Made by a program: the position numbers and the translations under genes
Origin: Clavibacter sp. A6099
GTDB taxonomy: Bacteria > Actinomycetota > Actinomycetes > Actinomycetales > Microbacteriaceae
Length of the DNA stretch: 64,000 bases
Direction of reading: 5' to 3'
Assembly (NCBI RefSeq): GCF_021919125.1
Contig: NZ_CP083439.1
Location: forward strand, 992,001 to 1,056,000
The notes under the pieces: generated by a model
What the model was told of the DNA's origin: nothing
Database searches by the model: none
Seen by the model: only the letters and a program-made list of their open reading frames with translations
Shown here: positions 46,638-62,382 of the stretch, in pieces
Numbering within the stretch: the first letter of the stretch is position 1
Layout: the number at the start of each line of letters is the position of its first letter

Positions 46638-48044
46638 TCAGGCCGCGTCGGCTCCGCCCGCGGCGCGGGTCGTGCCGTGCTCGCGCAGCACGAGGAGCGC
46701 CACGAGCGAGATCGCGGACGCGACGCTGAGGTAGACGCCGACGAGCATCACGCCGCCGCCGCCGATGTCCCAGAGCCACGTCGCGATGAACGGCGCGACC
46801 GCGCCGCCGATGATGCCCGCGAGGCTGAACGCCAGGGACGCGCCCGTGTAGCGGACGTCGGGGGCGAACATGCCGGGCAGCAGGGATCCGACGGCGCCGT
46901 ACCCGATGCCGATGAGCGCGAAGCCGAGGATCACGAACATCAGCGTGCCGGGCAGGCCCGCGGAGAGCAGGGGATCCATCAGCAGGCCGAAGACGACCAT
47001 GCCGGCGGCGCTCACGGCCACGATGGGACGCGCGCCGCGGCGCTGGGCGAGCGCGCCCGAGACCACGATGGTGATCGCGAAGAACACGACGCCGACGAGG
47101 AGCATGAGCAGGAAGTCGGTGCGGGCGTAGCCGAGCCCGGCGTGGAACGAGGCCGCGTCGAAGGGCTTGCCCGCCGCGGAGGCGGCGGCCTGCGCGGCCT
47201 CCGCGGTGCGGGGCGACGTGCCGTAGGTGACCGTGAACGTGGTCATGAGGTAGAAGAGCGTGAAGATGGCGAGGAGGGCGAGCGCCCCGAGGACCAGGCC
47301 CCGCCAGCCGGTGCGGATGGTGCGGCCGAGCGGCAGCCGCGACGTCTCGCCGCGGTCGAGGACCGCCTGGAACTCCGGCGCCTCGACGAGCTTCACGCGC
47401 ACGTAGAGGCCCACGAGCACGAGCACGGCGCTGGCGAGGAACGGCACGCGCCAGCCCCACGACTGCAGGTCGGCGGGGGAGAGCGTGAGAGAGAGCACCA
47501 GGAACAGGCCGGTCGAGAGGAAGAAGCCGATGGGCGCGCCGAGCTGCGGGAACGTGCCGTAGATCGCCCGCTTGCCCGCCGGTGCGTTCTCGGTCGCCAG
47601 CAGCGCCGCGCCGCCCCACTCGCCGCCGAGGCCGAGGCCCTGGATGAAGCGGAGCACGGCCAGTGCGGCGGGGGCCGCGATCTCCCAGCCCGGCGTGAGG
47701 CCGCTCGGCAGGGATCCGATGAGCACGGTGGCGATGCCCATGGTGAGCAGCGACGCGACGAGCGTGCGCGTGCGGCCGAACCGGTCGCCGAAGTGGCCGA
47801 AGAGCACGGATCCGATGGGCCGGGCGAAGAACGCGACGCCGAACACAGCGAGGGACTGCAGCTGCGCGACCGCCGGGTCGGCGTTGGCGAAGAACAGCGC
47901 GGGGAACACCAGCACGGCGGCCGTGGCGTAGACGTAGAAGTCGAAGAACTCGATGGACGTGCCGATGAGGCTCGCGACCAGCACGCGCGAGCGCGGGTTG
48001 GCCGGGGCGATGCCGGGCGGGGAGACGGTGGAGGCAGCGGTCAT
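46638..48044 (-). CDS. MHS-family MFS symporter, copy A
   Basis: A 468-residue metabolite:H+ symporter (12 helices) of the ShiA/ProP/KgtP-like MHS group. Clear signatures: IGTSIEFFDFYVYATAAVLVFPALFF in the first helix, FARPIGSVLFGHFGDRFGRT in loop 2-3, RFIQGLGLGGEWGGAALLATE in helix 4, and WGWRVPFL. Substrates of relatives include shikimate, alpha-ketoglutarate, betaine, proline and citrate. Closely similar to the next gene upstream, from which it is separated by 104 bases containing an inverted repeat. Confidence 0.9.
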   Translation of the reverse strand: MTAASTVSPPGIAPANPRSRVLVASLIGTSIEFFDFYVYATAAVLVFPALFFANADPAVAQLQSLAVFGVAFFARPIGSVLFGHFGDRFGRTRTLVASLLTMGIATVLIGSLPSGLTPGWEIAAPAALAVLRFIQGLGLGGEWGGAALLATENAPAGKRAIYGTFPQLGAPIGFFLSTGLFLVLSLTLSPADLQSWGWRVPFLASAVLVLVGLYVRVKLVEAPEFQAVLDRGETSRLPLGRTIRTGWRGLVLGALALLAIFTLFYLMTTFTVTYGTSPRTAEAAQAAASAAGKPFDAASFHAGLGYARTDFLLMLLVGVVFFAITIVVSGALAQRRGARPIVAVSAAGMVVFGLLMDPLLSAGLPGTLMFVILGFALIGIGYGAVGSLLPGMFAPDVRYTGASLAFSLAGIIGGAVAPFIATWLWDIGGGGVMLVGVYLSVASAISLVALLVLREHGTTRAAGGADAA

Positions 48045-48076
48045 GGCGGTGGCTTCCGACTTCAGGGACGGGGAGA

Positions 48077-48092
48077 CGCCACGAACGTGGCG
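48077..48092 (-). promoter_or_regulatory. inverted repeat upstream of MHS copy A
   Basis: CGCCACG (48077-48083), AA, CGTGGCG (48086-48092): perfect 7-base arms, 33 bases before the ATG of copy A at 48044. It could be an operator, or a hairpin at the end of copy B transcripts. Confidence 0.4.
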
Positions 48093-48148
48093 CGCCGACG
48101 GTACCGGCGCTCCCCGCCCCTCCGGGCCGGCCGTTCACATGACGCGTG

Positions 48149-49564
48149 TCAACTGACGTTCCCCGCGTAATCGGCGTCGCGGGTCTCGCGGCTGATGATG
48201 AGCGCCACAAGCGTGATCGCCGCCATCGCGCTCAGGTACACGCCGACCAGCAGCACGTTCCCGTCGAGCAGCTGCCAGAGCGCGACCGCGATGAAGGGCG
48301 CGACCGCGGCGCCGAGGATGCTCGCGACGTTGTAGCTGATCGCGGATCCCGTGTAGCGCACGTTGGTCGGGAACAGCTCCGGCAGCACCGCCCCCATGGG
48401 GCCGAACGTGAGGCCCATGAGCGTGAATCCGATGATGAGGAGCGCCATCGTGCCGACGAAGCCGGCGGAGAACAGCGGCACGAAGAGCAGGCCGAAGACG
48501 AGGATCCCGACGGTGGTCGCGATGAGCATCTTGCGACGGCCGTGCTTCTCGGCGAGGGGTCCCGAGACCATCGTGAAGATGCCGAAGAACACGACGCCCA
48601 CGATGAGCATGATGAGGAAGTCGTTGCGCGCGTAGCCGAGGCCCGCGGCGAACGTGTCCGGGTTGAAGGTCTTGCCGGCCTTCGTCGCGGCGGCCTCCGC
48701 CGTCGCGGCGTCGCGCGCCGTGGTGCCGTAGGTGAGCGTGAACGTGGTCATCAGGTAGAACAGCGTGTAGGTCGCCAGCATGATGAAGGTGCCGAGGATC
48801 AGCGGGCGCCAGCTCGTGACGAACACGCGCGCGACGGGCAGCTTCGCGACCTCGCCGGAGTCGACGACCTTCTGGAACGCGGGCGTCTCGATGAGCTTCA
48901 GGCGCACGTAGAGCCCGACGATCACGAGCACGGCGCTCGCGAGGAACGGCACGCGCCAGCCCCACGCCTGGAACTGCTCGGGGGTGAGGCCGAGGCTCAG
49001 CGCGAGGAAGACGCCGTTGGCGACGATGAAGCCGATGGGCGCGCCGAGCTGCGGGAACGTGCCGTAGATGGCGCGCTTGCCGGCGGGCGCGTTCTCGGTC
49101 GCGAGGAGGGCGGCGCCGCTCCACTCGCCGCCGAGGCCGAGGCCCTGGCCGAAGCGCATGATCACGAGGAGCGCGGGGGCCGCGACCTCCCACCCGGGCG
49201 TGAGCGCGGTGGGCAGGCAGCCGATCAGCACGGTCGCGATGCCCATGGTGAGCAGCGACGCGACGAGCGTGCCCTTCCGGCCGACCCGGTCGCCGAAGTG
49301 GCCGAAGAGGATGGATCCGATGGGCCGCGCGATGAAGGCGACGCCGAACACCGCGAAGGACGCGAGCTGCGCGACGGTCGGGTCGTCGTTCGCGAAGAAG
49401 AGCGCGGGGAAGACGAGCACCGCCGCGGTCGCGTAGACGTAGAAGTCGTAGAACTCGATCGACGTGCCGATGAGGCTCGCGATGATGACGCGCGAGCGCG
49501 AGTTCCCGGCGGGCGGGGTGGCGGTGGACGGAGCGGCGGTGCGGGCCGCGGGGGTCGTGGACAT
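48149..49564 (-). CDS. MHS-family MFS symporter, copy B
   Basis: A 471-residue MHS symporter, tandem paralogue of copy A. Long identical blocks are seen, e.g. ENAPAGKRAIYGTFPQLGAP, FLASAVLV and FYLMTTFT, with divergence in the loops (LKLIETPAFQKVVDSGEVAKL versus VKLVEAPEFQAVLDRGETSRL). Same MHS signatures (GTSIEFYDFYVYATAAVLVFP; FIARPIGSILFGHFGDRVGR). Starts MSTTPAARTAAPSTATPP; no strong ribosome-binding site. TAAACT at 49691-49696 may be its -10, giving a leader of about 120 bases. Confidence 0.9.
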   Translation of the reverse strand: MSTTPAARTAAPSTATPPAGNSRSRVIIASLIGTSIEFYDFYVYATAAVLVFPALFFANDDPTVAQLASFAVFGVAFIARPIGSILFGHFGDRVGRKGTLVASLLTMGIATVLIGCLPTALTPGWEVAAPALLVIMRFGQGLGLGGEWSGAALLATENAPAGKRAIYGTFPQLGAPIGFIVANGVFLALSLGLTPEQFQAWGWRVPFLASAVLVIVGLYVRLKLIETPAFQKVVDSGEVAKLPVARVFVTSWRPLILGTFIMLATYTLFYLMTTFTLTYGTTARDAATAEAAATKAGKTFNPDTFAAGLGYARNDFLIMLIVGVVFFGIFTMVSGPLAEKHGRRKMLIATTVGILVFGLLFVPLFSAGFVGTMALLIIGFTLMGLTFGPMGAVLPELFPTNVRYTGSAISYNVASILGAAVAPFIAVALWQLLDGNVLLVGVYLSAMAAITLVALIISRETRDADYAGNVS

Positions 49565-49780: not shown

Positions 49781-50104
49781 ATGGAGCACGAGACCGGCCG
49801 CGCTGTCCTGCCCGGGCTCGCGAAGCTCTGCGGCGTCGGGGTGTTCGCAGCCCTCGCTACCGGGTACTGGTACCTGGCCATCCCGTGCGTCGCGGTCGTC
49901 GTGCTGTGCGTGCTGCAGCTGCGTCGGTGGACGCACCAGGAGCTCGAGGAGCGCGCCCGCCTCGCCGAGGAGCCGACCGAGGAGGGCCAGGCGGAGGCGC
50001 TCAGGTGGGACGCGGACGGCGGCGTCGCCGTGCATCCGCGGGAGGAGGAGCCGCGACCGGTGGCGCCGCGACCGGACGACCAGGGACCGGGCGAGCGGCG
50101 CTAG
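49781..50104 (+). CDS. small membrane protein of unknown function
   Basis: A 107-residue protein with two adjacent hydrophobic segments (LCGVGVFAALATGYWYLAIPCVAVVVLCVLQL, about residues 16-47) and a long charged, Glu/Pro/Arg-rich cytoplasmic tail. GAGGAG four bases before the ATG supports the start. No family recognised. Its TAG shares the palindrome CTAG with the stop of the convergent permease gene, so the two genes end on the same four bases. Confidence 0.65.
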   Translation: MEHETGRAVLPGLAKLCGVGVFAALATGYWYLAIPCVAVVVLCVLQLRRWTHQELEERARLAEEPTEEGQAEALRWDADGGVAVHPREEEPRPVAPRPDDQGPGERR

Positions 50105-51894
50105 CCCGCCGGGACCATCGCCGGCGCGTCGGCCGGGCGCGCGTCGGCGGCGGATCCGCGTCGCCGCCTCAGCAGCCCCGTCAGGTCGTGTGCCGAGAGC
50201 GACACCGCGAGCACCGCGGCCAGCACGAGCGCGAGCGCGGGGGCGGCGACCGCCCACGGGGCGCGCTCCGCGTAGGCGCTGCCCTCGCTGAGGATCAGGC
50301 CCCACTCGGGCGTCGGCGGGGCGCTGCCCAGGCCGAGGAAGCCGAGCGCCGCGAGCGTGAGGGCGATGCCGGGCAGGCGCAGCATCGCGTTCCGCACGAC
50401 CGGGCCGACGACGGCGGGCAGGAGGTGGGCGAGGAGGATCCGCGCGCGTCCGACGCCGAGCACCGGCAGGATCCGCACGTGCGGCTGCGCGCGCGCCTCC
50501 TGCATCAGCGCCCCGGCGTGCGCGGCGAGCGGCGCCCAGCCCACGGCCGCCACCGCGATGGCGGCCCCCGCGCTCGACGGGCCCTGGATCGCGGCCACCA
50601 CGATCCCGGCGAGGATCGGCGGGGCCGCGTTCGCCACCTCGATCGGCCCGAGCGCGGCGCGCGGCAGGAGGCCGAGCGCGAGCCCGATGGCGCAGCAGGC
50701 GATGACCACGACCAGCGCCGTGCCGAGCGTCGTGACGGCGCCGTGGCCGACCCGCCCGAGGAGGTCGCGGCCGCTCGCGTCGGCGCCGAACGGCAGCGCC
50801 CACGAGGGCGGGGCGAGGCGGCCCGCGGTGGTGGCGAGGGGATCCCGCGCGAGGCCCGCCACGACGATGAGCGCGAGGAGCCCGGCCGCGACCGCGGGGA
50901 TGACGGCGTCGCGCGGACGGGCGGGGACGCGCGCGTCGGGCACGGGCAGCGATCCGAGGCGGAGGGCGGGGCCGAGGAGCGCGCGCCGGGCGAGATCCGC
51001 GAGCGCACCGGCCGCGACGGCGACCGCGAGGAGCGCGAGCACGCCCGCCTGGAGCGCGGGGACGTCCTGGCTGCCGGCCGCGCCGAGGGTCGCGCGGCCG
51101 ATGCCGGGGATCGCGAACACCTGCTCGACCGCGACCGCGCCGCCCGTGAGGCCGACGAGCACGAGCCCGATCTGCCCGAGCACCGACGGCAGCGCGCGGC
51201 GCAGCACCGCGAGGGTCGTGCGCGCGGGCGAGAGGCCCGCCATCGCCCATGTCGCGACCCAGCGCTCGGCGGACGCGGCCCGGATCGCGTCGGCGAGGAG
51301 GCGGCCGACGAGCCCGCCCGCGGGGATCCCGAGGGCGAGCGCGGGGAGCGCCGCGTTCGCCGGCCCGTCCCACCCGGACGGCGGCGCCCAGCGCAGCCAG
51401 ACGGCGACCACCACGAGCAGCGCGGTCGCGAGCAGGAACTCCGGGAGCGCCGTGAGGGCGGCGGACAGGGCGCCGGATCCGCGGGCCAGGCGCCCGCGCG
51501 TCGCGTCGCGGAGTGCGGGCGCGCACAGGAGCGCGGCGACCCCCACGGCGACGGCGATCGCGAACGCCATCAGCGTGAGGGAGACGCCGAGCGCGCCCAG
51601 GGTGCCGGGGAGGACCGGGCGGCCCGAGATCCACGACGTGCCGAGGTCGCCGCGGACCACGCCCGCGAGCCAGTCGAGCGAGACGGCCAGCGGCCCCCGG
51701 TCGAGGCCGAGCTGCGCGCGCACCGCCGCGAGCGCCTCCGGGGTGGCCTCGAGGTCGGCGTAGCGCGCGCGGAGGATCGTGTACTCGGGCGAGCGGCCGG
51801 AGAGCCACGGCAGCGCGCCGACGAGCGCCACGACGCCGCCGATCGCGACGACGCGGGACGCCCCGACGACGAGCCCGTCGCGCGCGCGGCCCAT
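50101..51894 (-). CDS. fused double permease (DppB-DppC-like) of a peptide/nickel/opine-type ABC importer
   Basis: A 597-residue membrane protein joining two BPD_transp_1 permeases that are normally separate. Residues 1 to about 310 resemble DppB/NikB: an N-terminal helix, RAQLGLDRGPLAVSLDWLAGVVRGDLGTSWISGRPV, and an EAA-type loop VATWAMAGLSPARTTLAVLRRALPSVLGQI, then VEQVFAIPGIGR. Residues 330-590 resemble DppC/NikC: LPFGADASGRDLLGRVGHGAVTTLG, the loop QPHVRILPVLGVGRARILLAHLLPAVVGPVV, and LGFLGLGSAPPTPEWGLILSEG. The first-domain N-terminus VVAIGGVVALVGALPWLSG is unusually short. Its ATG overlaps the SBP stop by one base. Last gene of the five-gene operon. Confidence 0.88.
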   Translation of the reverse strand: MGRARDGLVVGASRVVAIGGVVALVGALPWLSGRSPEYTILRARYADLEATPEALAAVRAQLGLDRGPLAVSLDWLAGVVRGDLGTSWISGRPVLPGTLGALGVSLTLMAFAIAVAVGVAALLCAPALRDATRGRLARGSGALSAALTALPEFLLATALLVVVAVWLRWAPPSGWDGPANAALPALALGIPAGGLVGRLLADAIRAASAERWVATWAMAGLSPARTTLAVLRRALPSVLGQIGLVLVGLTGGAVAVEQVFAIPGIGRATLGAAGSQDVPALQAGVLALLAVAVAAGALADLARRALLGPALRLGSLPVPDARVPARPRDAVIPAVAAGLLALIVVAGLARDPLATTAGRLAPPSWALPFGADASGRDLLGRVGHGAVTTLGTALVVVIACCAIGLALGLLPRAALGPIEVANAAPPILAGIVVAAIQGPSSAGAAIAVAAVGWAPLAAHAGALMQEARAQPHVRILPVLGVGRARILLAHLLPAVVGPVVRNAMLRLPGIALTLAALGFLGLGSAPPTPEWGLILSEGSAYAERAPWAVAAPALALVLAAVLAVSLSAHDLTGLLRRRRGSAADARPADAPAMVPAG

Positions 51895-53462
51895 CAGCGC
51901 GCGACGCGCGTGTCGACCGTGATGAGCGCGCGCTCGCGGGGATCGCGCACGGCGCCCGTCACCCCGGCGGCCTCGCCCTGGATCACGCGCTCGTGCAGGA
52001 GCGGCACCGCGGCGTCGTCGGCGAGCACGAGGGCCTCGACCCGCATGATCGCGGCGCGGCGCTCGGGCCCGGCCGGCAGCGCGGACGCCTCGGCGAGGGC
52101 CTGGTCGACCGCGGGGTCGCACTCCTGCGAGATGTTGAACGAGCCCTGGCAGGCGAAGTCGCTGTAGAGGTAGGCGGCCGGATCCCCGGAGTCGAGCACG
52201 GTCGCGCGCGACAGGATGAAGGCGTCGAACTTCCCCGCGAGCGCGTCGGCCTCGATGTACTGGTACTCGCGCACGTCCTGGGTCACGTCGAAGCCGGCCG
52301 CTTCCAGCTGCTGCTCGAGCTGCACGGCGACCTCGGGGAGCTCGGCGCGGTCCGTGAAGGTGCCGAGGGTGATGGGCACGCCGTCGACCCGCGCGGGCGT
52401 CGCCCGGCCCGCCAGCGCGTCGCGGTAGGAGGCGCCGTCGCGGAGGTCGGCGGCCCAGGGGAGCGCGGGGCCGAGGAGCCCGGTGGCCTCGTCTGCCCGG
52501 CCCTCGTAGACGCCGGAGACGAGCGCGGCGCGGTCGACCGCGGCCTCGGCGGCGGCGCGCACGGCCGGGTCCGCGAACGGTCCGGTCCGCGTGTTCAGGT
52601 ACAGCGTGTTCGTGCGCGGCATGGCGACCTCGTGCAGGAGCTGCGGATCGACCTGCGCGGCCTGGCCCACGGGGATCGCCTCGACCACGTCGGCCGTGCC
52701 CGTGCGGAGGGCGGCGGCGCGCGCGGTGCCGTCGGGGACGAAGCGCACGTCGATGCCGGCGGACGCGGCGCGGCCGCCCCAGTAGCCGTCGAACCGGTCG
52801 AGCCTGGCGGAGGACGTGCCGTCGACCGCGGTCAGGCGGAACGGGCCCGTGCCGGTGCCGACGGGGGACACGGTGCCGTCGGCGCCGTACGCGGAGGCCG
52901 CGAGGATCGCCAGCTGCGGGCTCGACATGCGCTGCGGCACGAGAGGGTCGGCCGTCGCGGTGCGCACGATGACCCGGTCGCCGTCGGCGGTGGCCGTGAG
53001 GTCGACGCCGTCGAGGATCCGCGGCTTCGGGCTCGCGGTCGCGGCGGCGGTGAGCGAGGCGGCGGCCTGCGCGGCCGTGAGGATCGTCCCGTCGTGGAAG
53101 GTCACGTCGGGGCGGATGTCGAATGCCCAGGTCAGGTCGTCCACGCGGGTCCAGCCGGTCGCGAGCTGCGGCTGCGCGTCGCCGAGGTCGTCGAGGGTCA
53201 CGAGGGTCTCGGCCGTGCTCCACCGCGCGAGCTTGAAGGCGTCGTCGCTGAGGGGCGTGAGGCCGGATCTCGGCGGCTGCAGCATGGCGAGGCGGATGCG
53301 GCCGTCGCCGTCCTGCGCGCCTCCCGGGGAGGATCCGGGGCTCGCGGCGAAGCAGCCGCTGAGGGCGAGCGTCGTCGCGGCGGCCAGCGCGATCAGCGCG
53401 GCGGAGCGAGCCGGGCGGGTGACGCGGGCGGGGCGGGCGGAGCGGGGGCGTCTAGCGGGCAT
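51894..53462 (-). CDS. solute-binding lipoprotein, DppA/NikA/OppA family 5
   Basis: A 522-residue extracytoplasmic binding protein: basic head, hydrophobic stretch and lipobox LALSGCFA, then a family-5 solute-binding domain with STAETLVTLDDLGDAQPQLATGWTRVDDLTWAFDIRPDVTFHDGT, PVGTGTGPF, and YLNTRTGPFADPAVRAAAEAAVDR. Ligands of relatives are peptides, nickel chelates or opine metallophores; a lone Cys pair in FACQGSFNISQECDPAV near residue 450 is also seen. Start set at the ATG with AAGGAC just before it. It overlaps the MFS gene by 11 bases. Confidence 0.9.
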   Translation of the reverse strand: MPARRPRSARPARVTRPARSAALIALAAATTLALSGCFAASPGSSPGGAQDGDGRIRLAMLQPPRSGLTPLSDDAFKLARWSTAETLVTLDDLGDAQPQLATGWTRVDDLTWAFDIRPDVTFHDGTILTAAQAAASLTAAATASPKPRILDGVDLTATADGDRVIVRTATADPLVPQRMSSPQLAILAASAYGADGTVSPVGTGTGPFRLTAVDGTSSARLDRFDGYWGGRAASAGIDVRFVPDGTARAAALRTGTADVVEAIPVGQAAQVDPQLLHEVAMPRTNTLYLNTRTGPFADPAVRAAAEAAVDRAALVSGVYEGRADEATGLLGPALPWAADLRDGASYRDALAGRATPARVDGVPITLGTFTDRAELPEVAVQLEQQLEAAGFDVTQDVREYQYIEADALAGKFDAFILSRATVLDSGDPAAYLYSDFACQGSFNISQECDPAVDQALAEASALPAGPERRAAIMRVEALVLADDAAVPLLHERVIQGEAAGVTGAVRDPRERALITVDTRVAR

Positions 53463-54855
53463 GGGGTCCTTCGGCGGGGATGCGCGGGGCATCGGCGGCG
53501 ATGCGCGGGGCATCGGGGGTGGTGGTCGGGGGAGCTGGGGTGGCGCGCGGGGACGCGGCGGGGCCGGGTGCGGGCGCGTCGGGCGCTTCGTGCGCGGGGA
53601 CGGTCGCGGGCAGCAGTCGGGGAAGGCCGACGGCCGCCGCGACGGGCAGCGCGGCGAGGATCCCCCAGGCGACGGCGGGCGCGTCGTCGAGCAGGGCTCC
53701 GACCACGCCGCCGGCCACGAGCACGGCGACGCCGCCGCAGCTCGCGAGCAGCCCGTAGAACGACGCGGTCGGGCGGCCGGCGGCGAACGACGGCACGAGC
53801 TCCATCGTCACGGGGCCCGCGGTCATGTGGCCGAGCGTGAGGCAGACGACGAGGACCGCGGCGGGCATGAGCTCGGCACCGGCGGGCGGCGGCACGACGG
53901 ACGCGAGCGCGAGCGCCGCGAACCCCGTCGCGGTCGTCGCGAAGCCGCAGGCGAGCGCGCGACCGGGGCCGAGCCGCTTCGCGAGGAGGGCGACGGGCCA
54001 CTGCAGCGCGATCGTGAGGAGCGAGACGGCGAGGAACGCGGATCCGACCGCCGCCGTCCCCGCACCGGCGCGCGCGAGCTCGAGCGGCAGCCCGAGGTAG
54101 AGCTGGTTGTAGGCCACGAGGTCGACGGCGAAGAGGGCGGAGAAGGCGAGGAAGCGGCGGTCGCGGACGGCGGCCCAGCGGTCGGCGGTGGCGGCGGGCG
54201 CGGCGTCGGGCGCCGGGTCGGCACCGGCGACGGGCGCGGATCCCATGGGCGACGCGACGACGGCCCGCCCCGCGTCCGCCGGGATCACGCACCACAGCGC
54301 CACCCCCACGGCCGCGAACAGCGCCGCGCCCACGAGCACGGTCGCGGAGAACCCGAGCCCGAGCAGGGCGGCGCCCGCGAGCGGACCCACGGCCGCGCCG
54401 ATCTCGCCCACCAGCACGAGCGCGGCGAACAGCGACGGGCGGCCGGACCGTCGCGTGGCGCGGCCCCTCGCGTCCGCTGCCGCCACGAGGCTCTGCAGCG
54501 CCGGGCTGAACAGCGCGCCGCCGAGCCCCGTGAGGATCGCGCCGACGAGGAAGCCGGCGAGGTCCGCGGCGAGCGCGAGCCCCAGGTAGCCGGACACGCG
54601 CACGACGCAGCCCGCGGCGATGAGGGTGCGCGGGCCGAAGCGGTCGGCGAGCATCCCGCCGAGCAGGAACAGGCCCTGCTGGCTGAAGGTGCGGGCGCCG
54701 AGCACCAGGCCGATCGCGAGGGCGCCGAGCCCGAGGTCGTCGCGCATCACGACGGCGAGGAACGGGACGACCGCGTAGAAGCCGAGGTTGAAGACGAGCT
54801 GGCTGGAGAGGAGGACGGCGGCGTGGGGAGGGGCGGCGCGGTGGGACAGGGTCAT
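53452..54855 (-). CDS. DHA1-type MFS transporter inside the ABC importer operon
   Basis: A 467-residue, 12-helix major-facilitator protein resembling the MdtH-like exporters: LGFYAVVPFLAVVMRDDLGLGALAIGLVLGARTFSQQGLFLLGGMLADRFGPRTLI at the N-terminus, with a central loop rich in Ala/Pro. The C-terminal 60 residues are a Pro/Ala/Thr tail with a DAPRI repeat. Embedded between the ATPase and SBP genes with overlaps of 4 and 11 bases. In staphylopine systems an MFS exporter (CntE) accompanies exactly this kind of importer, so export of a metallophore or efflux of imported ligand are plausible roles; neither is shown. Confidence 0.87.
   Translation of the reverse strand: MTLSHRAAPPHAAVLLSSQLVFNLGFYAVVPFLAVVMRDDLGLGALAIGLVLGARTFSQQGLFLLGGMLADRFGPRTLIAAGCVVRVSGYLGLALAADLAGFLVGAILTGLGGALFSPALQSLVAAADARGRATRRSGRPSLFAALVLVGEIGAAVGPLAGAALLGLGFSATVLVGAALFAAVGVALWCVIPADAGRAVVASPMGSAPVAGADPAPDAAPAATADRWAAVRDRRFLAFSALFAVDLVAYNQLYLGLPLELARAGAGTAAVGSAFLAVSLLTIALQWPVALLAKRLGPGRALACGFATTATGFAALALASVVPPPAGAELMPAAVLVVCLTLGHMTAGPVTMELVPSFAAGRPTASFYGLLASCGGVAVLVAGGVVGALLDDAPAVAWGILAALPVAAAVGLPRLLPATVPAHEAPDAPAPGPAASPRATPAPPTTTPDAPRIAADAPRIPAEGPHAR
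53474..53516 (-). repeat. 21-base direct repeat in the C-terminal tail of the MFS gene
   Basis: GATGCGCGGGGCATCGG occurs at 53479-53495 and 53500-53516 (period 21). It encodes two DAPRI-containing heptads at the very end of the MFS protein, just before the SBP ribosome-binding site. Confidence 0.85.
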
Positions 54856-55679
54856 GCGGTGAGCGCTCCCGGCAGCCGCGGCACGGCGTCGGCGAGCTCG
54901 CGCGTGGCGGGGTGCGCGGGGTCGGCGAGCAGGCGCCCGGTCGGCCCCTCCTCCACGATCCGCCCGCCGGCCAGCACCACGCTCCGCCCGCAGAGCCGCG
55001 CGACGGCGTCGAGGTCGTGCGACACGAGCGCGAGCCCGAGGCCGCGCTCGCGCACGAGGTCGCCGAGCAGCTCGATGATCCGGTCCCGCAGCGGCAGGTC
55101 CACCCCGCTCACGGGCTCGTCGGCGAGGAGGATCCCCGGCGAGGTCGCGATGGCCCGGGCGAGCGCCACGCGCTGCGCCTGCCCGCCGGACAGCTCGCGG
55201 GGCCGGCGGTCGGCGAGCGACGAGGCGAGCCCGACGTCGTCGAGGGCGCGCGCGACGATCGCGGCGTGGTCGCCGGTCACGTCGAGGCGGCGGAGCGGCT
55301 CGCGGATCAGCTGCCGCACGGTCATGCGCGGCTCGAGGCTCGCGCCCGGATCCTGCGGCACCGCCTGCACGCGCCTCCGGTACCAGCGGAGGGCGGATGC
55401 GCGGCCGGGCGCGATGGCCCGGTCGCCGAGCGCCACGTTGCCCGCGGTCGGCGCCTCGAGCGCGAGCAGGATGCGCAGGAGCGTCGACTTGCCGGATCCG
55501 GAGCGGCCCACGATCCCGACCGTCTCGCCGGGCGCCACGCGGAACGAGACGTCGTCGAGCGCGGGTGCCGGGCCGGGGGCTCCGGACGCGCGGGCCGCCC
55601 GGGCTTCGCGTCGCGCGGCCGGGTCGCGCCGCGGCGGGTACCCGTGCGTGATCCCGATCGCGGTGAGCGCGTCGGTCAT
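54852..55679 (-). CDS. ABC importer ATPase, DppF/NikE-like
   Basis: A 275-residue ATPase: Walker A VGRSGSGKSTLLRIL, Q-loop VPQDPGASLEPRMTVRQLI, signature ELSGGQAQRVALARAI, Walker B ILLADEPVSGVDLPLRD and switch VSHDLDAVARL. It lacks the C-terminal oligopeptide HPY extension and the cysteine cluster of many Dpp ATPases, as NikE/CntF-type subunits do. A long linker (PAARREARAARASGAPGPAP) follows the first strand. Starts MTDALTAIGITHGY in a four-base overlap with the preceding ATPase. Confidence 0.88.
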   Translation of the reverse strand: MTDALTAIGITHGYPPRRDPAARREARAARASGAPGPAPALDDVSFRVAPGETVGIVGRSGSGKSTLLRILLALEAPTAGNVALGDRAIAPGRASALRWYRRRVQAVPQDPGASLEPRMTVRQLIREPLRRLDVTGDHAAIVARALDDVGLASSLADRRPRELSGGQAQRVALARAIATSPGILLADEPVSGVDLPLRDRIIELLGDLVRERGLGLALVSHDLDAVARLCGRSVVLAGGRIVEEGPTGRLLADPAHPATRELADAVPRLPGALTA

Positions 55680-56578
55680 CGGGCCGCCACCGCGCCGAGC
55701 GGGGCCGACGCGGAGGCCGTCGCCGTCGCCCCGTCCGGGGATCCGCCGCCCGCCCGCCGCGTCGCCGCCGCCCCGTCCGGGGATCCGCCGCCCGCCCGCC
55801 GCGTCGCCGCCGCCACGAGCGCCCGGCTGTACGCGTGCCGCGGCCGCCGCACGAGCTCGCGCATCGACCCGGCCTCGACCACGCGGCCGGCCTCGAGCAC
55901 GACGACCCGGTCGCACAGCGCCGCGGCGACCGCGAGGTCGTGCGTGATGAAGAGGAGCGCCTGGCCGGTCGCGTCGAGGCGGCGGCGGATCACGTCGACC
56001 ACGCGCGCCTGCGTCACGACGTCGAGCGAGGTCGTCGGCTCGTCGGCCAGCAGCAGGTCGGCACGGCAGAGGAGCGCGAGCGCGAGGCAGACGCGCTGTC
56101 GCTGGCCGCCCGACAGCTCGGCGGCGAAGGCGGGGAGCGCTCCCTCCGGATCCTCGATGCCCACCTCGGCGAGGAGGGCGACGACCTCGCGCCGGGCGTC
56201 GCCGCGGGCGAGGAGCCCGCCGTCCGCGGCGGATCCGCGGGCCCGGCTCGCGCGCAGCGCCGCGACGAGCTGCGCGCCCACCGTGACGAGCGGGTTCAGC
56301 GCCGCGAGCGAGTCCTGCTGCACCGCGGCGACGCGGCCGAGGCGCTGGCGAGGAGCGGCCGGCCCGACCGCGCGGCCGCCGAGCTCGACGACGCCCCGCA
56401 CGCGCGACCCGGGCGGCAGCGTCCCGAGCACGGCCTGCGCGGTGAGCGACTTGCCGGACCCGGACGCGCCGACCAGCGCCACGCGCTCGCCGGCCCCGAC
56501 GCGGAGATCGAGGTCGTGCACGAGCGGCGCGCGGTCGATCGCGATGGAGAGGGAGCGGAGGTCGAGGGCGGGATGCAC
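55676..56578 (-). CDS. ABC importer ATPase, DppD/NikD-like
   Basis: First gene of the operon (300 residues). Walker A LVGASGSGKSLTAQAVLG, Q-loop AAVQQDSLAALNPLVTVG, signature ELSGGQRQRVCLALAL, Walker B LLLADEPTTSLDVVTQ and switch ITHDLAVAAAL. The domain ends with RRPRHAYSRALVAAA, then a tail with two copies of a 14-residue unit. GTG start (MHPALDLRSLSIAI); the leader to the inferred transcription start is about 48 bases. Heterodimerises with the next ATPase. Confidence 0.88.
   Translation of the reverse strand: MHPALDLRSLSIAIDRAPLVHDLDLRVGAGERVALVGASGSGKSLTAQAVLGTLPPGSRVRGVVELGGRAVGPAAPRQRLGRVAAVQQDSLAALNPLVTVGAQLVAALRASRARGSAADGGLLARGDARREVVALLAEVGIEDPEGALPAFAAELSGGQRQRVCLALALLCRADLLLADEPTTSLDVVTQARVVDVIRRRLDATGQALLFITHDLAVAAALCDRVVVLEAGRVVEAGSMRELVRRPRHAYSRALVAAATRRAGGGSPDGAAATRRAGGGSPDGATATASASAPLGAVAAR
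55728..55811 (-). repeat. 42-base direct repeat in the NikD-like ATPase gene
   Basis: Two near-identical 42-base units starting at 55728 and 55770, encoding RRAGGGSPDGAAAT followed by RRAGGGSPDGATAT beyond the conserved ATPase domain. Recent duplication in a dispensable tail. Confidence 0.9.
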
Positions 56579-56632
56579 CTGGCCCCCGTCCGTCCGCGCA
56601 TGCTGCCGGGCGGTCCGGCGGCGCTCCCGACG

Positions 56633-56661
56633 ACCTTACTGATACCCGTTCTCGATATCAA
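56633..56661 (-). promoter_or_regulatory. strong promoter with an embedded Fur-family-like operator
   Basis: On the minus strand TTGATA (56661-56656) and TAAGGT (56638-56633) are separated by exactly 17 bases, the best promoter in the window. An interrupted palindrome TGATA-N11-TATCA covers 56640-56660, overlapping the -35 and the spacer, the position of a repressor site. Twelve of 19 bases match the classic Fur box GATAATGATAATCATTATC, so a Fur-family protein (Zur, Fur or Mur) is the likely regulator; this is inference. The patch is distinctly AT-rich against the GC-rich surroundings. Confidence 0.7.
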
Positions 56662-56679
56662 AACCGAGCGGACGGAAGG

Positions 56680-57162
56680 TCAGGCCCCGCGGATCCCCTT
56701 CAGCAGCAGGGCCGTCGTCACCGCGGCCTCGGCCGCCTCGGCGCCCTTGTCCTCCTTCGACCCCGGGAGCCCGGCGCGGTCGAGGCCCTGCTGCTCGTCG
56801 TCGAGCGTGAGCAGCCCGAAGCCGATGGGCTTGCCCGCGAGCAGCGACGCCTGCGTGAGGCCCGAGGTCGCGGCGTCCGACACGTACTCGAAGTGCGGGG
56901 TGCCGCCCCGGATGATCACGCCGAGCGCGACGACCGCGTCGGCCCCCGCGTCGAGCGCCGCGCGCGCGACCACGGGCAGCTCGAAGCTCCCGGGCACGCG
57001 GATCACCGTGGTGGTCGCGCCGGCGGCGTCGAGCACGCGCTGCGCCCCGGCGAGGAGGCCCGCGCTGATCTCGTCGTGCCAGCGTCCGGCGACGACGGTG
57101 ACCCGGAGGCCGCTCCCGTCGAGCGCGGTCGGGTCGATCTCGGGTGCTCCGTGTCCGCTCAT
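56680..57162 (-). CDS. ribH: 6,7-dimethyl-8-ribityllumazine synthase
   Basis: Lumazine synthase (160 residues), condensing the ribityl-pyrimidine with dihydroxybutanone phosphate. Motifs VVAGRWHDEISAGLL, VPGSFELPVVARAAL, ALGVIIRGGTPHFEYVSDAA (catalytic His) and PIGFGLLTLDDEQQ are all present. Last gene of the riboflavin operon; its ATG overlaps the ribBA stop by four bases. Confidence 0.96.
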   Translation of the reverse strand: MSGHGAPEIDPTALDGSGLRVTVVAGRWHDEISAGLLAGAQRVLDAAGATTTVIRVPGSFELPVVARAALDAGADAVVALGVIIRGGTPHFEYVSDAATSGLTQASLLAGKPIGFGLLTLDDEQQGLDRAGLPGSKEDKGAEAAEAAVTTALLLKGIRGA

Positions 57163-58508
57163 GCGGTCTCCTCCTCAGGGGTGGTGGTGGCCGGGCCGGC
57201 CGTCGTGGTGGTCAGGCCGTCGGGCGCCTCGGCGTCCGGGTAGGCGTCGGGTCCGATGTGCATGTCGGTGTCGAGCACCATGCGGTGCCCCATGCGGTCG
57301 CGCTTCGTCTCGAGGTAGCCGGCGTTCACGTCGTTGACGCCGACGACCAGCGGCACGCGCTCGGTCACCTCCACGCCGTGCGCCTCGAGCTGCCGCACCT
57401 TCTCGGGGTTGTTCGTGAGCAGGCGCACGTCCTCGATCCCCATCTCCTGCAGGATCGCCGAGGCGGCGCCGTAGTCGCGCGCGTCCGCCGGGAGGCCCAG
57501 GGCGACGTTGGCGTCGAGCGTGTCGAAGCCGTCCTCCTGCAGCCGGTACGCGCGCAGCTTGTTGATGAGGCCGATGCCGCGCCCCTCGTGCCCGCGCAGG
57601 TAGACGACGACGCCGCCGTCGCGCTGGATCTCGTCGAGCGCCGCGTCGAGCTGCGGTCCGCACTCGCACTTGAGCGATCCGAGCGCCTCGCCCGTCAGGC
57701 ACTCCGAGTGCACGCGCACGAGCGTGCCGTGCGCGCGCGGCTCGCCCGCGACGATCGCGACGTGGTCGGCGCCCGTCGTGCGGTCCCGGTAGGCGCGGAG
57801 CTTGACCGTGCCGTGCGTGGTGGGGACCGTGGTCTCGACCTCGAAGATCACGCGAGACGCCTCGGGGATCGCGACGGCCGGCTCGAGCGCCCGGTCGCAG
57901 TGGAACTCCTCGAGGTGCGCCTTGAGCGCCTCGATCGTCACGACCAGCACGCCCTCGCGCTCGCCGAGCGCGAGGAGGCCGGGGAGGCGCATCATCTCGC
58001 CGTCGTCCTGCACGATCTCGCTGATCGCGCCCACGGGCGTGAGTCCCGCGAGCGTGAGGAGGTCGACCGCGGCCTCGGTGTGGCCGTCGCGCTCGCGCAC
58101 GCCGCCGTCCACCGCGCGCAGCGGCAGGATGTGGCCCGGCCGGTGCAGGCTCGTCGGCACGCTGCCGAGGTCGGCGAGCACGCGCAGGGTGTGCGCGCGG
58201 TCGGACGCGCTGATGCCCGTGGAGAGCCGGTCGGCCGCGTCGACGGAGACCGTGTAGGCGGTGCCGCGCGGATCCCGGTTGTCGGCCACCATGAGCGGCA
58301 GCTCCAGCCGGTCGGCGATCTCGTTCGTCATGGGCGCGCAGATGAAGCCCGACGAGTGCCTGACGAGCCAGGCCACCCACTCGGGAGATGCGGACTCGGC
58401 GGCGAGCAGCACGTCGCCCTCGTTCTCGCGGCCCTCGTCGTCGACGACGATCACGGGCCGTCCGGCGCGCAGCTCCTGCAGCGCGGCGGGGATCTCGGCG
58501 AGGCTCAC
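57159..58508 (-). CDS. ribBA: bifunctional DHBP synthase / GTP cyclohydrolase II
   Basis: A 449-residue fusion. The N-terminal RibB half (DDEGRENEGDVLLAAESA, TGISASDRAHTL, HRPGHILPL, GHTEAAVDL) makes 3,4-dihydroxy-2-butanone 4-phosphate. The C-terminal RibA half (VRVHSECLTGEALGSLKCECGPQL with the three zinc Cys, YLRGHEGRGIGL, TNNPEKVRQLEAHG) opens GTP. About 45 residues of acidic/Thr-rich tail follow. GTG start in an overlap with ribE (GTGA). Confidence 0.96.
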   Translation of the reverse strand: MSLAEIPAALQELRAGRPVIVVDDEGRENEGDVLLAAESASPEWVAWLVRHSSGFICAPMTNEIADRLELPLMVADNRDPRGTAYTVSVDAADRLSTGISASDRAHTLRVLADLGSVPTSLHRPGHILPLRAVDGGVRERDGHTEAAVDLLTLAGLTPVGAISEIVQDDGEMMRLPGLLALGEREGVLVVTIEALKAHLEEFHCDRALEPAVAIPEASRVIFEVETTVPTTHGTVKLRAYRDRTTGADHVAIVAGEPRAHGTLVRVHSECLTGEALGSLKCECGPQLDAALDEIQRDGGVVVYLRGHEGRGIGLINKLRAYRLQEDGFDTLDANVALGLPADARDYGAASAILQEMGIEDVRLLTNNPEKVRQLEAHGVEVTERVPLVVGVNDVNAGYLETKRDRMGHRMVLDTDMHIGPDAYPDAEAPDGLTTTTAGPATTTPEEETA

Positions 58509-59167
58509 GCGCGCGCCTCCTCGGTGCCGGTGCTGGGCACGTCGTCGCGGTCGCGTGCGTCGAGCGCGAGCATCCGCTGCACGTGCCGCGCGAGCACGTC
58601 GGTCTCGAGGTTGACCTCGTCGCCGAGCTCGAGCGCGCCGAGCGTCGTCGCCGTGAGCGTCTCCGGGATGAGCGACACCTCGAACCAGGCGTCGGCATCG
58701 GGGGTGTCGGTGGGGCTGACCGCGCTCACGGTGAGGCTCACGCCCTGCACCGTGATGGATCCGCGGTCCACCACGAGCGGCGCGAGCTCGGCGGGCAGCG
58801 AGAAGCGGAGGATGCGCCACGCCTCGCCCGGCGTGGTCGCGAGCAGGCGGCCCGTGCCGTCGACGTGGCCCTGCACGATGTGGCCGCCGAGCCGGTCGCC
58901 CACGCGCGCGGCGCGCTCGAGGTTCACGCGGTCGCCCACGCCGAGCCGGCCGAGCGAGCTCATCACGAGCGTCTGCCGCATGACGTCCGCGGTGAAGCCC
59001 TCGGGCGTCTGCGCGACGACCGTGAGGCACACGCCGTCGACGCTGATGGAGTCGCCGTGCCGGGCGTCGGACACCGCGAGCGGCGCCTCCACCGTGATCC
59101 GGGCGGAGTCGCCCTCGGCGTCGAGCGCGAGGACGCGTCCGCGCTCCTCGATGATCCCTGTGAACAT
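58505..59167 (-). CDS. ribE: riboflavin synthase alpha subunit
   Basis: Dismutates lumazine to riboflavin (220 residues). Internal duplication as in the family: MFTGIIEERGRV start, DSISVDGVCLTV in the first barrel, GHIVQGHVDGTGRL, and GSITVQGVSLTV in the second. Its ATG shares one base with the ribD stop (TGATG); its own stop overlaps ribBA. Confidence 0.95.
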   Translation of the reverse strand: MFTGIIEERGRVLALDAEGDSARITVEAPLAVSDARHGDSISVDGVCLTVVAQTPEGFTADVMRQTLVMSSLGRLGVGDRVNLERAARVGDRLGGHIVQGHVDGTGRLLATTPGEAWRILRFSLPAELAPLVVDRGSITVQGVSLTVSAVSPTDTPDADAWFEVSLIPETLTATTLGALELGDEVNLETDVLARHVQRMLALDARDRDDVPSTGTEEARA

Positions 59168-60237
59168 CACTGGCCTTCCGTGGTGGGTCGCGCGGTCACG
59201 AGGATGTCGTCCCCGAGCCGCGTCGTGCTGATGAGGGTGAGTCGGTGGGCGGCCGGCATGCTCGGCACGCCGAGGTCGCCGGTAGCCGTGCGGGGGCCGC
59301 CGAGGAGGACGGGCGCGAGGTAGGCGACCACCTCGTCCACGAGCCCGGCGGCGACGAGCGCGGAGACGATCGTGGGGCCGCCCTCCACGAAGACGTGCCG
59401 GATGCCGAGGCGGCCGAGCTCCGCGAGGGCCGCGGCCGGGTCGTGGCCCGCGATGCGGATGAGCCGCCGCGGGTGCCGGTGCACGGCCGCGTCGTCCGGG
59501 ATCGCGCGGTCGCCGAGCACGACGGGTGCCGGCTGGTGCGGGTACGGGATCCCGTCGGGCCGGCGCGCGGTGAGCGCGGGATCGTCGGCGAGCACCGTGC
59601 CGGTGCCCACGAGGATCGCGTCGGCCTCGGCGCGGCGGCGGTGCACGTCCTCCCGGGCGGCGGGTCCGGTGATCCAGCGGCTCGTGCCGTCGGCGGCGGC
59701 GATGCGGCCGTCGAGGCTGGATGCCCACTTGGCCGTCACGAACGGGCGGCCGAGCCGGGCGGATCCGAGCCACACGCGCAGGAACGCCGCGGCCTCCTCG
59801 GCGAGCACGCCGTCGGTGACCTCGACGCCCGCGGCGCGGAGGCGGGCCGCGCCGCCCGAGGACTCGGCACCCGGGTCGGCGACCGCGTACGCGACGCGGG
59901 CGACCCCGGCCTCGATCAGCGCGGCGGCGCACGGCCCCGTGCGGCCGGTGTGGTTGCAGGGTTCGAGCGTGACGACCGCGGTGGATCCGCGTGCCCCGCC
60001 GGCGGGCAGCTGCCGCAGCGCGTCGACCTCGGCGTGGGCGGATCCGGCGCCGCGGTGGCGGCCCTCGGCGATGACGCGGCCGGAGGCGTCGAGGATCACG
60101 CAGCCGACGCGCGGGTTCGGGCCCCACGCGGGACCCTCGGCGGCGAGCTCGAGGCCGCGGCGCATCGCGCGTTCGAGCGCGTGCGCGTCGGCCGCGCGCT
60201 GGGCGGCCGCGTGCGGTGCCGTCGGGTCGTCGTGCAT
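59167..60237 (-). CDS. ribD: bifunctional pyrimidine deaminase / reductase
   Basis: First enzyme of the riboflavin operon (356 residues). The N-terminal deaminase has GSAHAEVDAL (zinc His and Glu) and VTLEPCNHTGRTGPC (zinc Cys pair). The C-terminal reductase has VTAKWASSLDGRIA, RAEADAILVGTGTVLADDP and VFVEGGPTIVSALV. ATG at 60237 chosen with GAGG five bases upstream; longer frames run through the riboswitch and are excluded. Under control of the FMN riboswitch. Confidence 0.96.
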   Translation of the reverse strand: MHDDPTAPHAAAQRAADAHALERAMRRGLELAAEGPAWGPNPRVGCVILDASGRVIAEGRHRGAGSAHAEVDALRQLPAGGARGSTAVVTLEPCNHTGRTGPCAAALIEAGVARVAYAVADPGAESSGGAARLRAAGVEVTDGVLAEEAAAFLRVWLGSARLGRPFVTAKWASSLDGRIAAADGTSRWITGPAAREDVHRRRAEADAILVGTGTVLADDPALTARRPDGIPYPHQPAPVVLGDRAIPDDAAVHRHPRRLIRIAGHDPAAALAELGRLGIRHVFVEGGPTIVSALVAAGLVDEVVAYLAPVLLGGPRTATGDLGVPSMPAAHRLTLISTTRLGDDILVTARPTTEGQ

Positions 60238-60309
60238 GGTGTCCTCGTCCGTGGACGGACTCCGGGCGCGGTCGACGAGACCTCGACGCCGGCAGGCTCG
60301 CCGACGCCG

Positions 60310-60450
60310 CGTGCGCCTCCCATCCGGACTCTCACCGTCGGTCCCGGATTCCCACCGGATCGGCGGACGAGGCTCCCGGGGACCCGGTCGCGCATCGTCC
60401 GTTCGCGGACTGTCACCGCCGGCTCGGATTTCCACCGACCCCGGAGCACG
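60310..60450 (-). ncRNA. FMN riboswitch (RFN element)
   Basis: The minus-strand leader of ribD contains the conserved RFN segments in order: GGGTCGGTGGAAATCCG, CCGGCGGTGACAGTCCGCGA, then CGGTGGGAATCCG, GACCGACGGTGAGAGTCCG and GATGGGAG, closed by a P1 stem of CGTGC at the 5' end with GCACG at the 3' end. It lies 70 bases before the ribD ATG and is expected to repress the riboflavin genes when FMN is bound. Confidence 0.95.
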
Positions 60451-60461
60451 TGTATGGGTCG

Positions 60462-60467
60462 AGATTA
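60462..60467 (-). promoter_or_regulatory. -10 box of the riboflavin operon
   Basis: TAATCT on the minus strand, placed so that transcription would begin at about 60455, right at the 5' end of the riboswitch. No clear -35. Confidence 0.5.
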
Positions 60468-60517
60468 GCCCACGCGGCTGCGGGGCCGGGGCCCGTGACG
60501 CTCCGCGACCTACGCCG

Positions 60518-62382
<1,865 letters not shown>

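What the first reader, a model, noticed from the sequence alone, without database searches (positions are those of the whole stretch)
50101..56661. Metal-regulated-looking operon: importer with a fused permease plus an embedded MFS transporter
Five overlapping genes encode two ATPases, a DHA1-type MFS protein, a family-5 binding lipoprotein and one protein carrying both permeases. The part list equals that of staphylopine/opine metallophore systems (CntA-D,F with the MFS exporter CntE), and the promoter is overlapped by a palindrome resembling a Fur-family box. No metallophore biosynthesis gene is in the window, so it may import a foreign metallophore, or biosynthesis lies elsewhere. I know of no described system with this gene order and fusion, but could not search.
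Basis: partly seen in the sequence, partly recalled or inferred. Interest (0 to 1): 0.8.

Follow-up and report, generated by a model that had tools for sequence, protein, structure and literature searches.

The report
Zinc-starvation chelate importer with MFS partner
This is a set of five genes that the bacterium probably switches on when zinc runs out, to pull in zinc bound to a small molecule; relatives of it sit in many soil and plant bacteria and on Klebsiella plasmids, but no paper found in our searches names it or tests it.

Summary
Window 50101-56578 (minus strand) is a tight operon: two Opp/Nik-type ATPases, an MdtH-like MFS protein, a family-5 binding lipoprotein and one protein holding both permease halves. 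The upstream palindrome is a Zur-type (zinc) operator: a motif learned from operon promoters outside Clavibacter scores it 21.8 (next best in the window 2.5) and also finds the genome's own znuACB-zur promoter. The operon recurs in actinobacteria and proteobacteria with the fused permease; each lineage has its own Zur-type box, shared with a znuA-type promoter in 24 of 26 genomes tested.

Best reading: a Zur-repressed importer of a zinc chelate, the MFS protein probably expelling the emptied ligand. Substrate unknown. By the family models it is not a staphylopine (Cnt), nickel (Nik) or dipeptide (Dpp) member; no opine dehydrogenase was found in it or 29 other hosts (no control rang).

New lead: two more Zur-type sites lie at a salicylate-NRPS cluster elsewhere in this genome, coelibactin-like in content, so a self-made zincophore is possible.

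The family is common in databases under generic names. New variant of a known kind. Regulation and transport are predicted, not measured.

The parts
55676..56578 (-). ATPase 1 (NikD/OppD-like ABC ATP-binding protein, GTG start)
   Evidence: ABC_tran 88 bits; best NCBIfam NikD 199.5 (cut-off 318.7)
54852..55679 (-). ATPase 2 (NikE/OppF-like ABC ATP-binding protein)
   Evidence: ABC_tran 116 bits; best NCBIfam NikE subfamily 207.3 (cut-off 354)
53452..54855 (-). MFS transporter, MdtH-like, embedded between ATPase 2 and binding protein
   Evidence: MFS_1 90.6 bits; best NCBIfam MdtH 98.2 (cut-off 469)
51894..53462 (-). Family-5 solute-binding lipoprotein
   Evidence: SBP_bac_5 195 bits; best NCBIfam Opp5A_nikA 170.2 (cut-off 600); nearest solved chain 3t66 E 6.8e-30
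50101..51894 (-). Fused permease: OppB/NikB-like half followed by OppC/NikC-like half in one 597-aa protein
   Evidence: matched across both halves in one piece in 78 of 80 related loci
56637..56657 (-). Predicted Zur operator, 21-bp 10-1-10 palindrome TATCGAGAACGGGTATCAGTA
56633..56661 (-). Likely core promoter TTGATA-17 bp-TAAGGT overlapped by the operator (read by eye; the consensus scan found none)

Best explanation
A Zur-repressed ABC importer of a zinc chelate. When zinc is plentiful, Zur with zinc sits on the 21-bp box over the promoter and blocks the operon. When zinc falls, the five genes are made together with ZnuACB. The lipoprotein catches a small organic zinc complex outside the membrane, the fused permease (one polypeptide doing the work of the usual B and C subunits) passes it in, driven by the two ATPases, zinc is released inside, and the MFS protein expels the emptied ligand so that it neither strips metal inside nor is lost. 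Supported by sequence here: operon, fusion, Zur-type box, its sharing with znuA-type promoters in several lineages. Inferred: Zur binding, zinc as the metal carried, a chelate as substrate, the MFS as exporter. Unknown: the ligand (foreign metallophore, self-made salicylate-NRPS product, or a common metabolite complex).
For: De novo motifs from operon promoters in three lineages exceed shuffled sets: actinobacteria n=41 score 939 vs at most 330, Enterobacterales n=13 377 vs 147, alphaproteobacteria n=8 162 vs 104. Leave-one-out scan of znuA-type promoters: 24 of 26 genomes have one at 0 or 1 of 300 shuffles. Own znuACB-zur promoter 23.7. Plasmid loci not used for the motifs carry the box before the operon: Klebsiella 21.1, Rahnella 32.0, Streptomyces 22.0, and before the Streptomyces rpmF 20.4. 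Four C. glutamicum Zur sites printed in PMC2823685 score 12.7-28.9, own operon 21.1. The E. coli znuA-znuC gap holds the best hit of its 4.5 kb for two of the three motifs. On the one Klebsiella plasmid read, the same five-gene order lies about 5 kb from ZigA (701.7, cut-off 600), HisI and a Fur-family protein. MFS is embedded in 29 of 80 loci and elsewhere in the fetched DNA of 14 more.
Against: No expression or binding data. The actinobacterial motif also resembles proteobacterial Fur boxes: it scores 24-31 at four ZnuA-family paralogues in gammaproteobacteria, 25.0 and 21.5 at two in alphaproteobacteria, and 24.6 near E. coli oppA, so the zinc call rests on sharing with znuA inside each genome. 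Rhizobium L102 showed no such sharing and Winslowiella only 4 of 300. The own genome has a second Fur-family gene. A third site of 21.9 on the Klebsiella plasmid (L178 17839) has no zinc gene beside it. MFS was not seen in 37 of 80 loci, some of them cut short. No zinc-ligand signature was identified in the binding protein.
Confidence: 0.7

Rival explanations
1. Peptide importer (dipeptide or glutathione-like) that happens to be under zinc control, for example to bring in cysteine- or histidine-rich peptides that carry zinc.
For: E. coli GsiB is the best of five E. coli references (98 bits), ahead of NikA 88.6 and DppA 77; the invariant Asp424 lines up with an Asp of DppA/OppA that I recall as binding the peptide amino group.
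Against: DppA model 43.8 bits (cut-off 1005), GsiB 85.6 (594); DppA groups with SapA, not with this family (98*), on long branches.
Confidence: 0.15
2. Nickel importer of the NikABCDE kind.
For: Best family names for the binding protein, permease halves and ATPases are nickel models; the nearest solved chains include nickel-binding proteins 3t66 and SaNikA.
Against: Scores far below cut-offs (Opp5A 170.2 of 600, NikA 88.8 of 393, NikB 128.4 of 447). The box is the znuA-type box. A nickel regulator site was not searched for.
Confidence: 0.07
3. True opine (staphylopine-type) metallophore system whose synthesis genes lie elsewhere in the genome.
For: Same transport parts; the Rahnella copy also ends with an EamA transporter, and MFS and EamA are the two main exporter types of opine zincophore clusters (PMC7438024, section 9).
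Against: CntA model 37.5 of 800 and CntC 55.7 of 440; PF10100 0 of 1 own genome, 0 of 29 other hosts and 0 of 346 Actinomycetota over cut-off, one weak match below it; no control rang in any of the three.
Confidence: 0.06
4. Iron-siderophore uptake operon under an iron regulator, the box being a Fur- or DtxR-type site.
For: The actinobacterial motif resembles proteobacterial Fur boxes; siderophore-type ABC genes lie near the operon in Enterobacter L087 (Peripla_BP_2) and Streptomyces plasmid L180 (FecCD).
Against: In proteobacteria the operon box equals that of one ZnuA-family promoter per genome and not that of the Fur-like paralogues; the own box pairs with znuACB-zur.
Confidence: 0.05

Closest known systems
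Staphylococcus aureus CntABCDF plus CntE (staphylopine, zinc)
   Same: Opp/Nik-type ABC importer for zinc with an MFS partner and zinc-responsive control (PMC5666155 passages; PMC7438024 section 9)
   Different: Opine synthesis genes in the operon (PMC8000910 passages), separate permease genes, binding protein of another subfamily; no synthesis genes in the window operon
Paracoccus denitrificans Pden1341-1344, Zur-bound cluster C ABC transporter (PMC5387054 outline and passages)
   Same: Ni/dipeptide-type importer whose promoter is bound by Zur and which rises 12.6-16-fold in zinc-depleted medium; Zur motif like my alphaproteobacterial motif
   Different: Listed as SBP, permease, permease, ATPase: no fused permease, no MFS; orthology to the window operon was not tested
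Zur regulon of Corynebacterium glutamicum (PMC2823685 passages)
   Same: 21-bp 10-1-10 palindrome overlapping core promoters; my motif scores four of its printed sites 12.7-28.9
   Different: No Opp-type importer among the targets shown in the passages seen
Zur-regulated cluster on Klebsiella plasmid pLVPK (PMC2770081 section 10)
   Same: Zinc-starvation genes on a Klebsiella plasmid; the plasmid read here has ZigA, HisI and a Fur-family gene near the same five-gene order
   Different: The section seen describes COG0523 and enzyme paralogues, not the ABC/MFS operon
E. coli NikABCDE, DppABCDF, GsiABCD
   Same: Fold families and subunit kinds
   Different: Far below family cut-offs; nik and dpp show separate permease genes

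Membership tests
Actinobacterial Zur regulon | 21-bp 10-1-10 palindromic Zur site at the promoter | tested here: met
   21-mer PWM 21.1, next best in window 1.7; four published sites 12.7-28.9
Actinobacterial Zur regulon | Same site at the genome's own znuACB-zur promoter | tested here: met
   box versus znuA upstream 17 of 23 identical, 1 of 2000 shuffles. The two-site pattern was built from both sites and is circular
Actinobacterial Zur regulon | Zinc-dependent binding by Zur and derepression in a zur mutant | not testable with these tools
   needs EMSA and expression data
Staphylopine/Cnt system | CntA-type binding protein | tested here: not met
   NF047575 37.5 bits, cut-off 800
Staphylopine/Cnt system | Separate CntB and CntC permeases | tested here: not met
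   one fused protein
Staphylopine/Cnt system | Opine dehydrogenase CntM in the genome | tested here: inconclusive
   none in own genome or 29 other hosts, but no control rang
Staphylopine/Cnt system | CntE-type MFS exporter | tested here: inconclusive
   MFS present; no CntE-named model among its 4 hits, and I do not know that the library holds one
NikABCDE nickel importer | NikA/Opp5A-type binding protein over cut-off | tested here: not met
   170.2 of 600 and 88.8 of 393
DppABCDF dipeptide importer | DppA-type binding protein | tested here: not met
   43.8 of 1005; DppA groups with SapA
Coelibactin-type zincophore cluster (for the lead at C1:285-311 kb) | Two NRPS genes, P450, ABC pair | tested here: met
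   gene content by family scans against the content given in PMC3430247 passages
Coelibactin-type zincophore cluster (for the lead at C1:285-311 kb) | Zur control and a zinc-binding product; sequence orthology | tested here: inconclusive
   two Zur-type sites predicted; orthology not tested, product not testable

The most novel reading that the evidence does not exclude
A separate, horizontally spread class of zinc-chelate shuttle: a fused-permease importer that brings in a zinc-loaded ligand and a co-transcribed MFS protein that returns the empty ligand, kept under each new host's own Zur. In Clavibacter it works with a Zur-controlled, coelibactin-like salicylate-NRPS zincophore made elsewhere in the genome, while other carriers use it to take a shared or foreign zincophore.
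Probability: 0.25. Interest if true: 0.78.

Novelty: new variant of a known kind. Interest (0 to 1): 0.6.

Why it matters
Relatives of this operon occur in soil actinobacteria, soft-rot enterobacteria and alphaproteobacteria, and a relative of its binding protein is on 479 Klebsiella plasmid records, under bland names in the 20 rows listed there. If it is a Zur-controlled zinc-chelate shuttle, it adds a widespread route of zinc uptake, gives a likely role to an unnamed operon on Klebsiella plasmids, and offers a way to find new zincophores: look for what the well-conserved binding protein holds. The Zur-type sites at a salicylate-NRPS cluster in Clavibacter also give a testable lead to a plant-associated zincophore.

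Tried and rejected
Considered and set aside: chance palindrome (unique in the window, kept in 13 of 13 aligned Clavibacter promoters); nickel, dipeptide and Cnt membership; a synthesis gene conserved beside the operon (ORF clustering of 49 of 80 loci: beyond three transporter clusters none was shared by more than 6 loci, and most of the 13 clusters looked at were antisense frames). All-against-all of the 80 loci timed out. A Pfam scan of 10 flank genes from five loci gave no shared partner; one was a siderophore-type binding protein in Enterobacter. Zinc papers whose passages did not name the operon: PMC10298282 (Pectobacterium odoriferum zur mutant; passages and section 9), PMC10797113, PMC7029138, PMC11481552, PMC10957091, PMC9249247 (passages only). 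'Not in print' rests on the ten searches in an open-licence library only. The PF10100 searches have no positive control, so absence of opine synthesis is weak. The promoter scan of 56540-56760 was negative.
Full report
What is there. The five genes exist at the stated place on the minus strand: ATPase 1 56578-55676, ATPase 2 55679-54852, MFS 54855-53452, binding lipoprotein 53462-51894, fused permease 51894-50101. Neighbouring frames overlap by 4, 4, 11 and 1 bases. Pfam scans confirm each part; every NCBIfam hit shown is below its curated cut-off, 25 of 185 hits being shown for each ATPase. The host is a Clavibacter by inference: contigs of same-genus genomes have the lengths of named Clavibacter contigs.

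Distribution. The binding protein is found at 91% or more in 13 of 18 Clavibacter genomes (own plus 17). One more, a fragmented assembly (G002), keeps the promoter and part of ATPase 1. Of the other four, G001 and G013 show ribH next to the small gene at about window 50040, a clean empty site; G005 and G007 also lack the ABC genes there but keep an MFS-like stretch. In named bacterial genomes 256 of 317 candidate stretches encode a relative and the best 80 were kept, so the identities below are those of a selected set. All 80 hold the permease, matched across both halves in one piece in 78 (L040 and L060 in part); the ATPases were usually upstream in the same order. The MFS gene lies between ATPase 2 and the binding protein in 29 of 80, elsewhere in the fetched DNA in 14, and was not seen in 37, some of which are cut short. 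On a quick tree of 42 family members the 16 proteobacterial copies form one clade (97*) nested among actinobacteria; with so far an outgroup this only suggests one passage from actinobacteria to proteobacteria. 521 plasmid records carry a relative of the binding protein at E 1e-60 or better, 479 from Klebsiella; gene order was read on one Klebsiella, one Rahnella and one Streptomyces record.

The box. Motifs were learned de novo from 150 bp upstream of ATPase 1, Clavibacter left out: actinobacteria n=41 TANTGANAATNATTNTCANTA (width 23 score 939, six shuffled sets at most 330), Enterobacterales n=13 TTGTTATGTTATAACATAACAA (width 22, 377 vs 147), alphaproteobacteria n=8 GTNATGTTATAACATNAC core (width 23 162 vs 104). 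Three of the 41 actinobacterial rows scored negative (L103, L109, L114), where the binding protein comes first and the region used is inside the operon; the other 38 scored 13.2 to 31.6. The remaining loci of the 80 were left out as near-copies, Clavibacter, two other gammaproteobacteria, or because ATPase 1 was cut or not upstream.

The zinc test. ZnuA-family genes were found in 25 of 25 host genomes, 59 places, and one in the own genome. I tested 400 bp upstream of 49 of the 59 places plus the own one, with the operon of the same genome left out of the motif. At least one promoter per genome reached 0 or 1 of 300 shuffles in 15 of 15 actinobacteria (own included), 4 of 5 alphaproteobacteria (Rhizobium failed) and 5 of 6 gammaproteobacteria (Winslowiella 4 of 300): 24 of 26. 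This takes the best of one to three paralogues per genome, uncorrected. Paralogues with a Fur-like box in gammaproteobacteria did not match the operon motif; one Dickeya paralogue gave a weak 4.6 (3 of 300). The actinobacterial motif itself resembles proteobacterial Fur boxes, so the motif alone does not prove zinc; the sharing does the work.

Controls. Loci not used for the motifs: Klebsiella plasmid L178 21.1 before the operon, 28.9 beside the Fur-family gene and 21.9 at 17839 with no zinc gene near; Rahnella L179 32.0; Streptomyces plasmid L180 22.0 before the binding protein and 20.4 before rpmF. The E. coli znuA-znuC gap holds the best site of its 4.5 kb for the enterobacterial motif (13.2) and the alphaproteobacterial motif (23.1), but not for the actinobacterial one; five other E. 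coli loci reach at most 3.3 and 11.5. Four C. glutamicum Zur sites printed in PMC2823685 score 28.9, 23.7, 22.9 and 12.7; the own operon 21.1. That paper's passages report zinc-dependent band shifts with its 21-bp motifs.

The own genome. A pattern taken from the actinobacterial motif, up to 3 mismatches, gives 8 sites in 3.33 Mb (reversed pattern 1). Scored by the PWM, six are strong: znuACB-zur 23.7; C1:306985 23.3; the operon 21.8; C1:30821 20.9 before a CobW_C/COG0523-type gene; C1:290258 20.6 at a P450 gene; C1:1184144 16.7 before a secreted protein without a family. The other two score 6.4 and 5.4. In 150,827 scanned own positions only these six reach 10; the rest of the genome was seen only through the pattern. 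The zur gene (PF01475) follows znuA and, by reading, znuC and znuB; rpmB and rpmG paralogues, also by reading, come after it. A second Fur-family gene lies at C1:740417.

A lead outside the window. C1:306985 lies between a 2271-aa NRPS (two condensation, two adenylation, three carrier domains) and a DHB/salicyl-AMP ligase (481.7 of cut-off 723.55) with a salicylate synthase after it (421.1, over cut-off 325.15). A second NRPS has condensation, adenylation, methyltransferase, carrier and thioesterase domains. An ABC pair, a methyltransferase and the P450 lie further on. Coelibactin, the Zur-regulated proposed zincophore of Streptomyces coelicolor, has two NRPS genes, a P450 and an ABC pair (PMC3430247 and PMC8000910 passages). 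The Clavibacter cluster is therefore coelibactin-like in content and predicted Zur control; orthology was not tested, and nothing shows that the window operon moves its product.

Neighbours elsewhere. The Klebsiella plasmid copy stands about 5 kb from ZigA (701.7, over cut-off 600), HisI (171.6, over 126) and a Fur-family protein whose best model is Zur (84.8, below 167). PMC2770081 flagged a Zur-regulated cluster on Klebsiella pLVPK in 2009 (section 10). The Streptomyces plasmid copy stands near FecCD, rpmF and COG0523-type genes. By equal contig lengths, ZnuA-family genes lie within about 10 kb of the operon in Goekera, Modestobacter and Paracoccus versutus; of these four genes two carry the box upstream and two, one in Goekera and the one in P. 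versutus, do not. The Rahnella copy ends with an EamA transporter; MFS and EamA are the main exporters of opine zincophore clusters (PMC7438024 section 9).

The binding protein. 42 copies share 67% mean column identity, with many invariant Arg and Asp, for example R148, R178, R283, R419, D424. D424 lines up with a DppA/OppA Asp that I recall as holding a peptide amino group. This would suit a ligand with amine and carboxylate groups, but that is inference.

Mechanism and verdict. Most likely a Zur-repressed zinc-chelate importer with an exporter for the emptied ligand. The closest measured parallel is Paracoccus denitrificans Pden1341-1344, bound by Zur and up 12.6-16-fold in zinc-depleted medium (PMC5387054 passages), of different gene make-up. 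Regulation is well supported by comparison, transport of zinc is likely, the ligand is open.

Noticed in passing
G000 C1:285000-311000 (L215, L216, L220): Salicylate-NRPS metallophore cluster with two Zur-type sites, coelibactin-like in gene content.
   Followed up: partly
G000 C1:1184144-1185486 (L218 4145-5487): Secreted-looking protein of 436 aa with no Pfam or NCBIfam hit, about 10 bp downstream of a Zur-type site scoring 16.7.
   Followed up: partly
G000 C1:30821-31926 (L219): CobW_C/COG0523-type gene without a matched N-terminal GTPase domain behind a Zur-type site scoring 20.9.
   Followed up: partly
window 46638-49564: Two adjacent MFS-like genes on the minus strand that look alike by eye, probable duplicates.
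   Followed up: no
window 56680-60648: ribH and, by reading, further riboflavin genes on the minus strand directly upstream of the operon.
   Followed up: no
L195, L196 (G005, G007): Clavibacter genomes without the ABC genes keep a stretch about 81% identical to the MFS gene beside the small gene next to ribH.
   Followed up: no
L178:5600-12300: The Klebsiella cassette region gives matches in 754 of 5426 E. coli genomes, 740 of 761 places on chromosomes, but only 19 genomes cover 80% of it; which part the chromosomes share was not looked at.
   Followed up: no
L178:17839: A palindrome scoring 21.9 on the enterobacterial motif lies between annotated genes for a transposase and a thermonuclease.
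   Followed up: no
L179:14163-19351: A second set of ABC genes (two ATPases, two permeases, binding protein) lies on the opposite strand next to the Rahnella copy.
   Followed up: no
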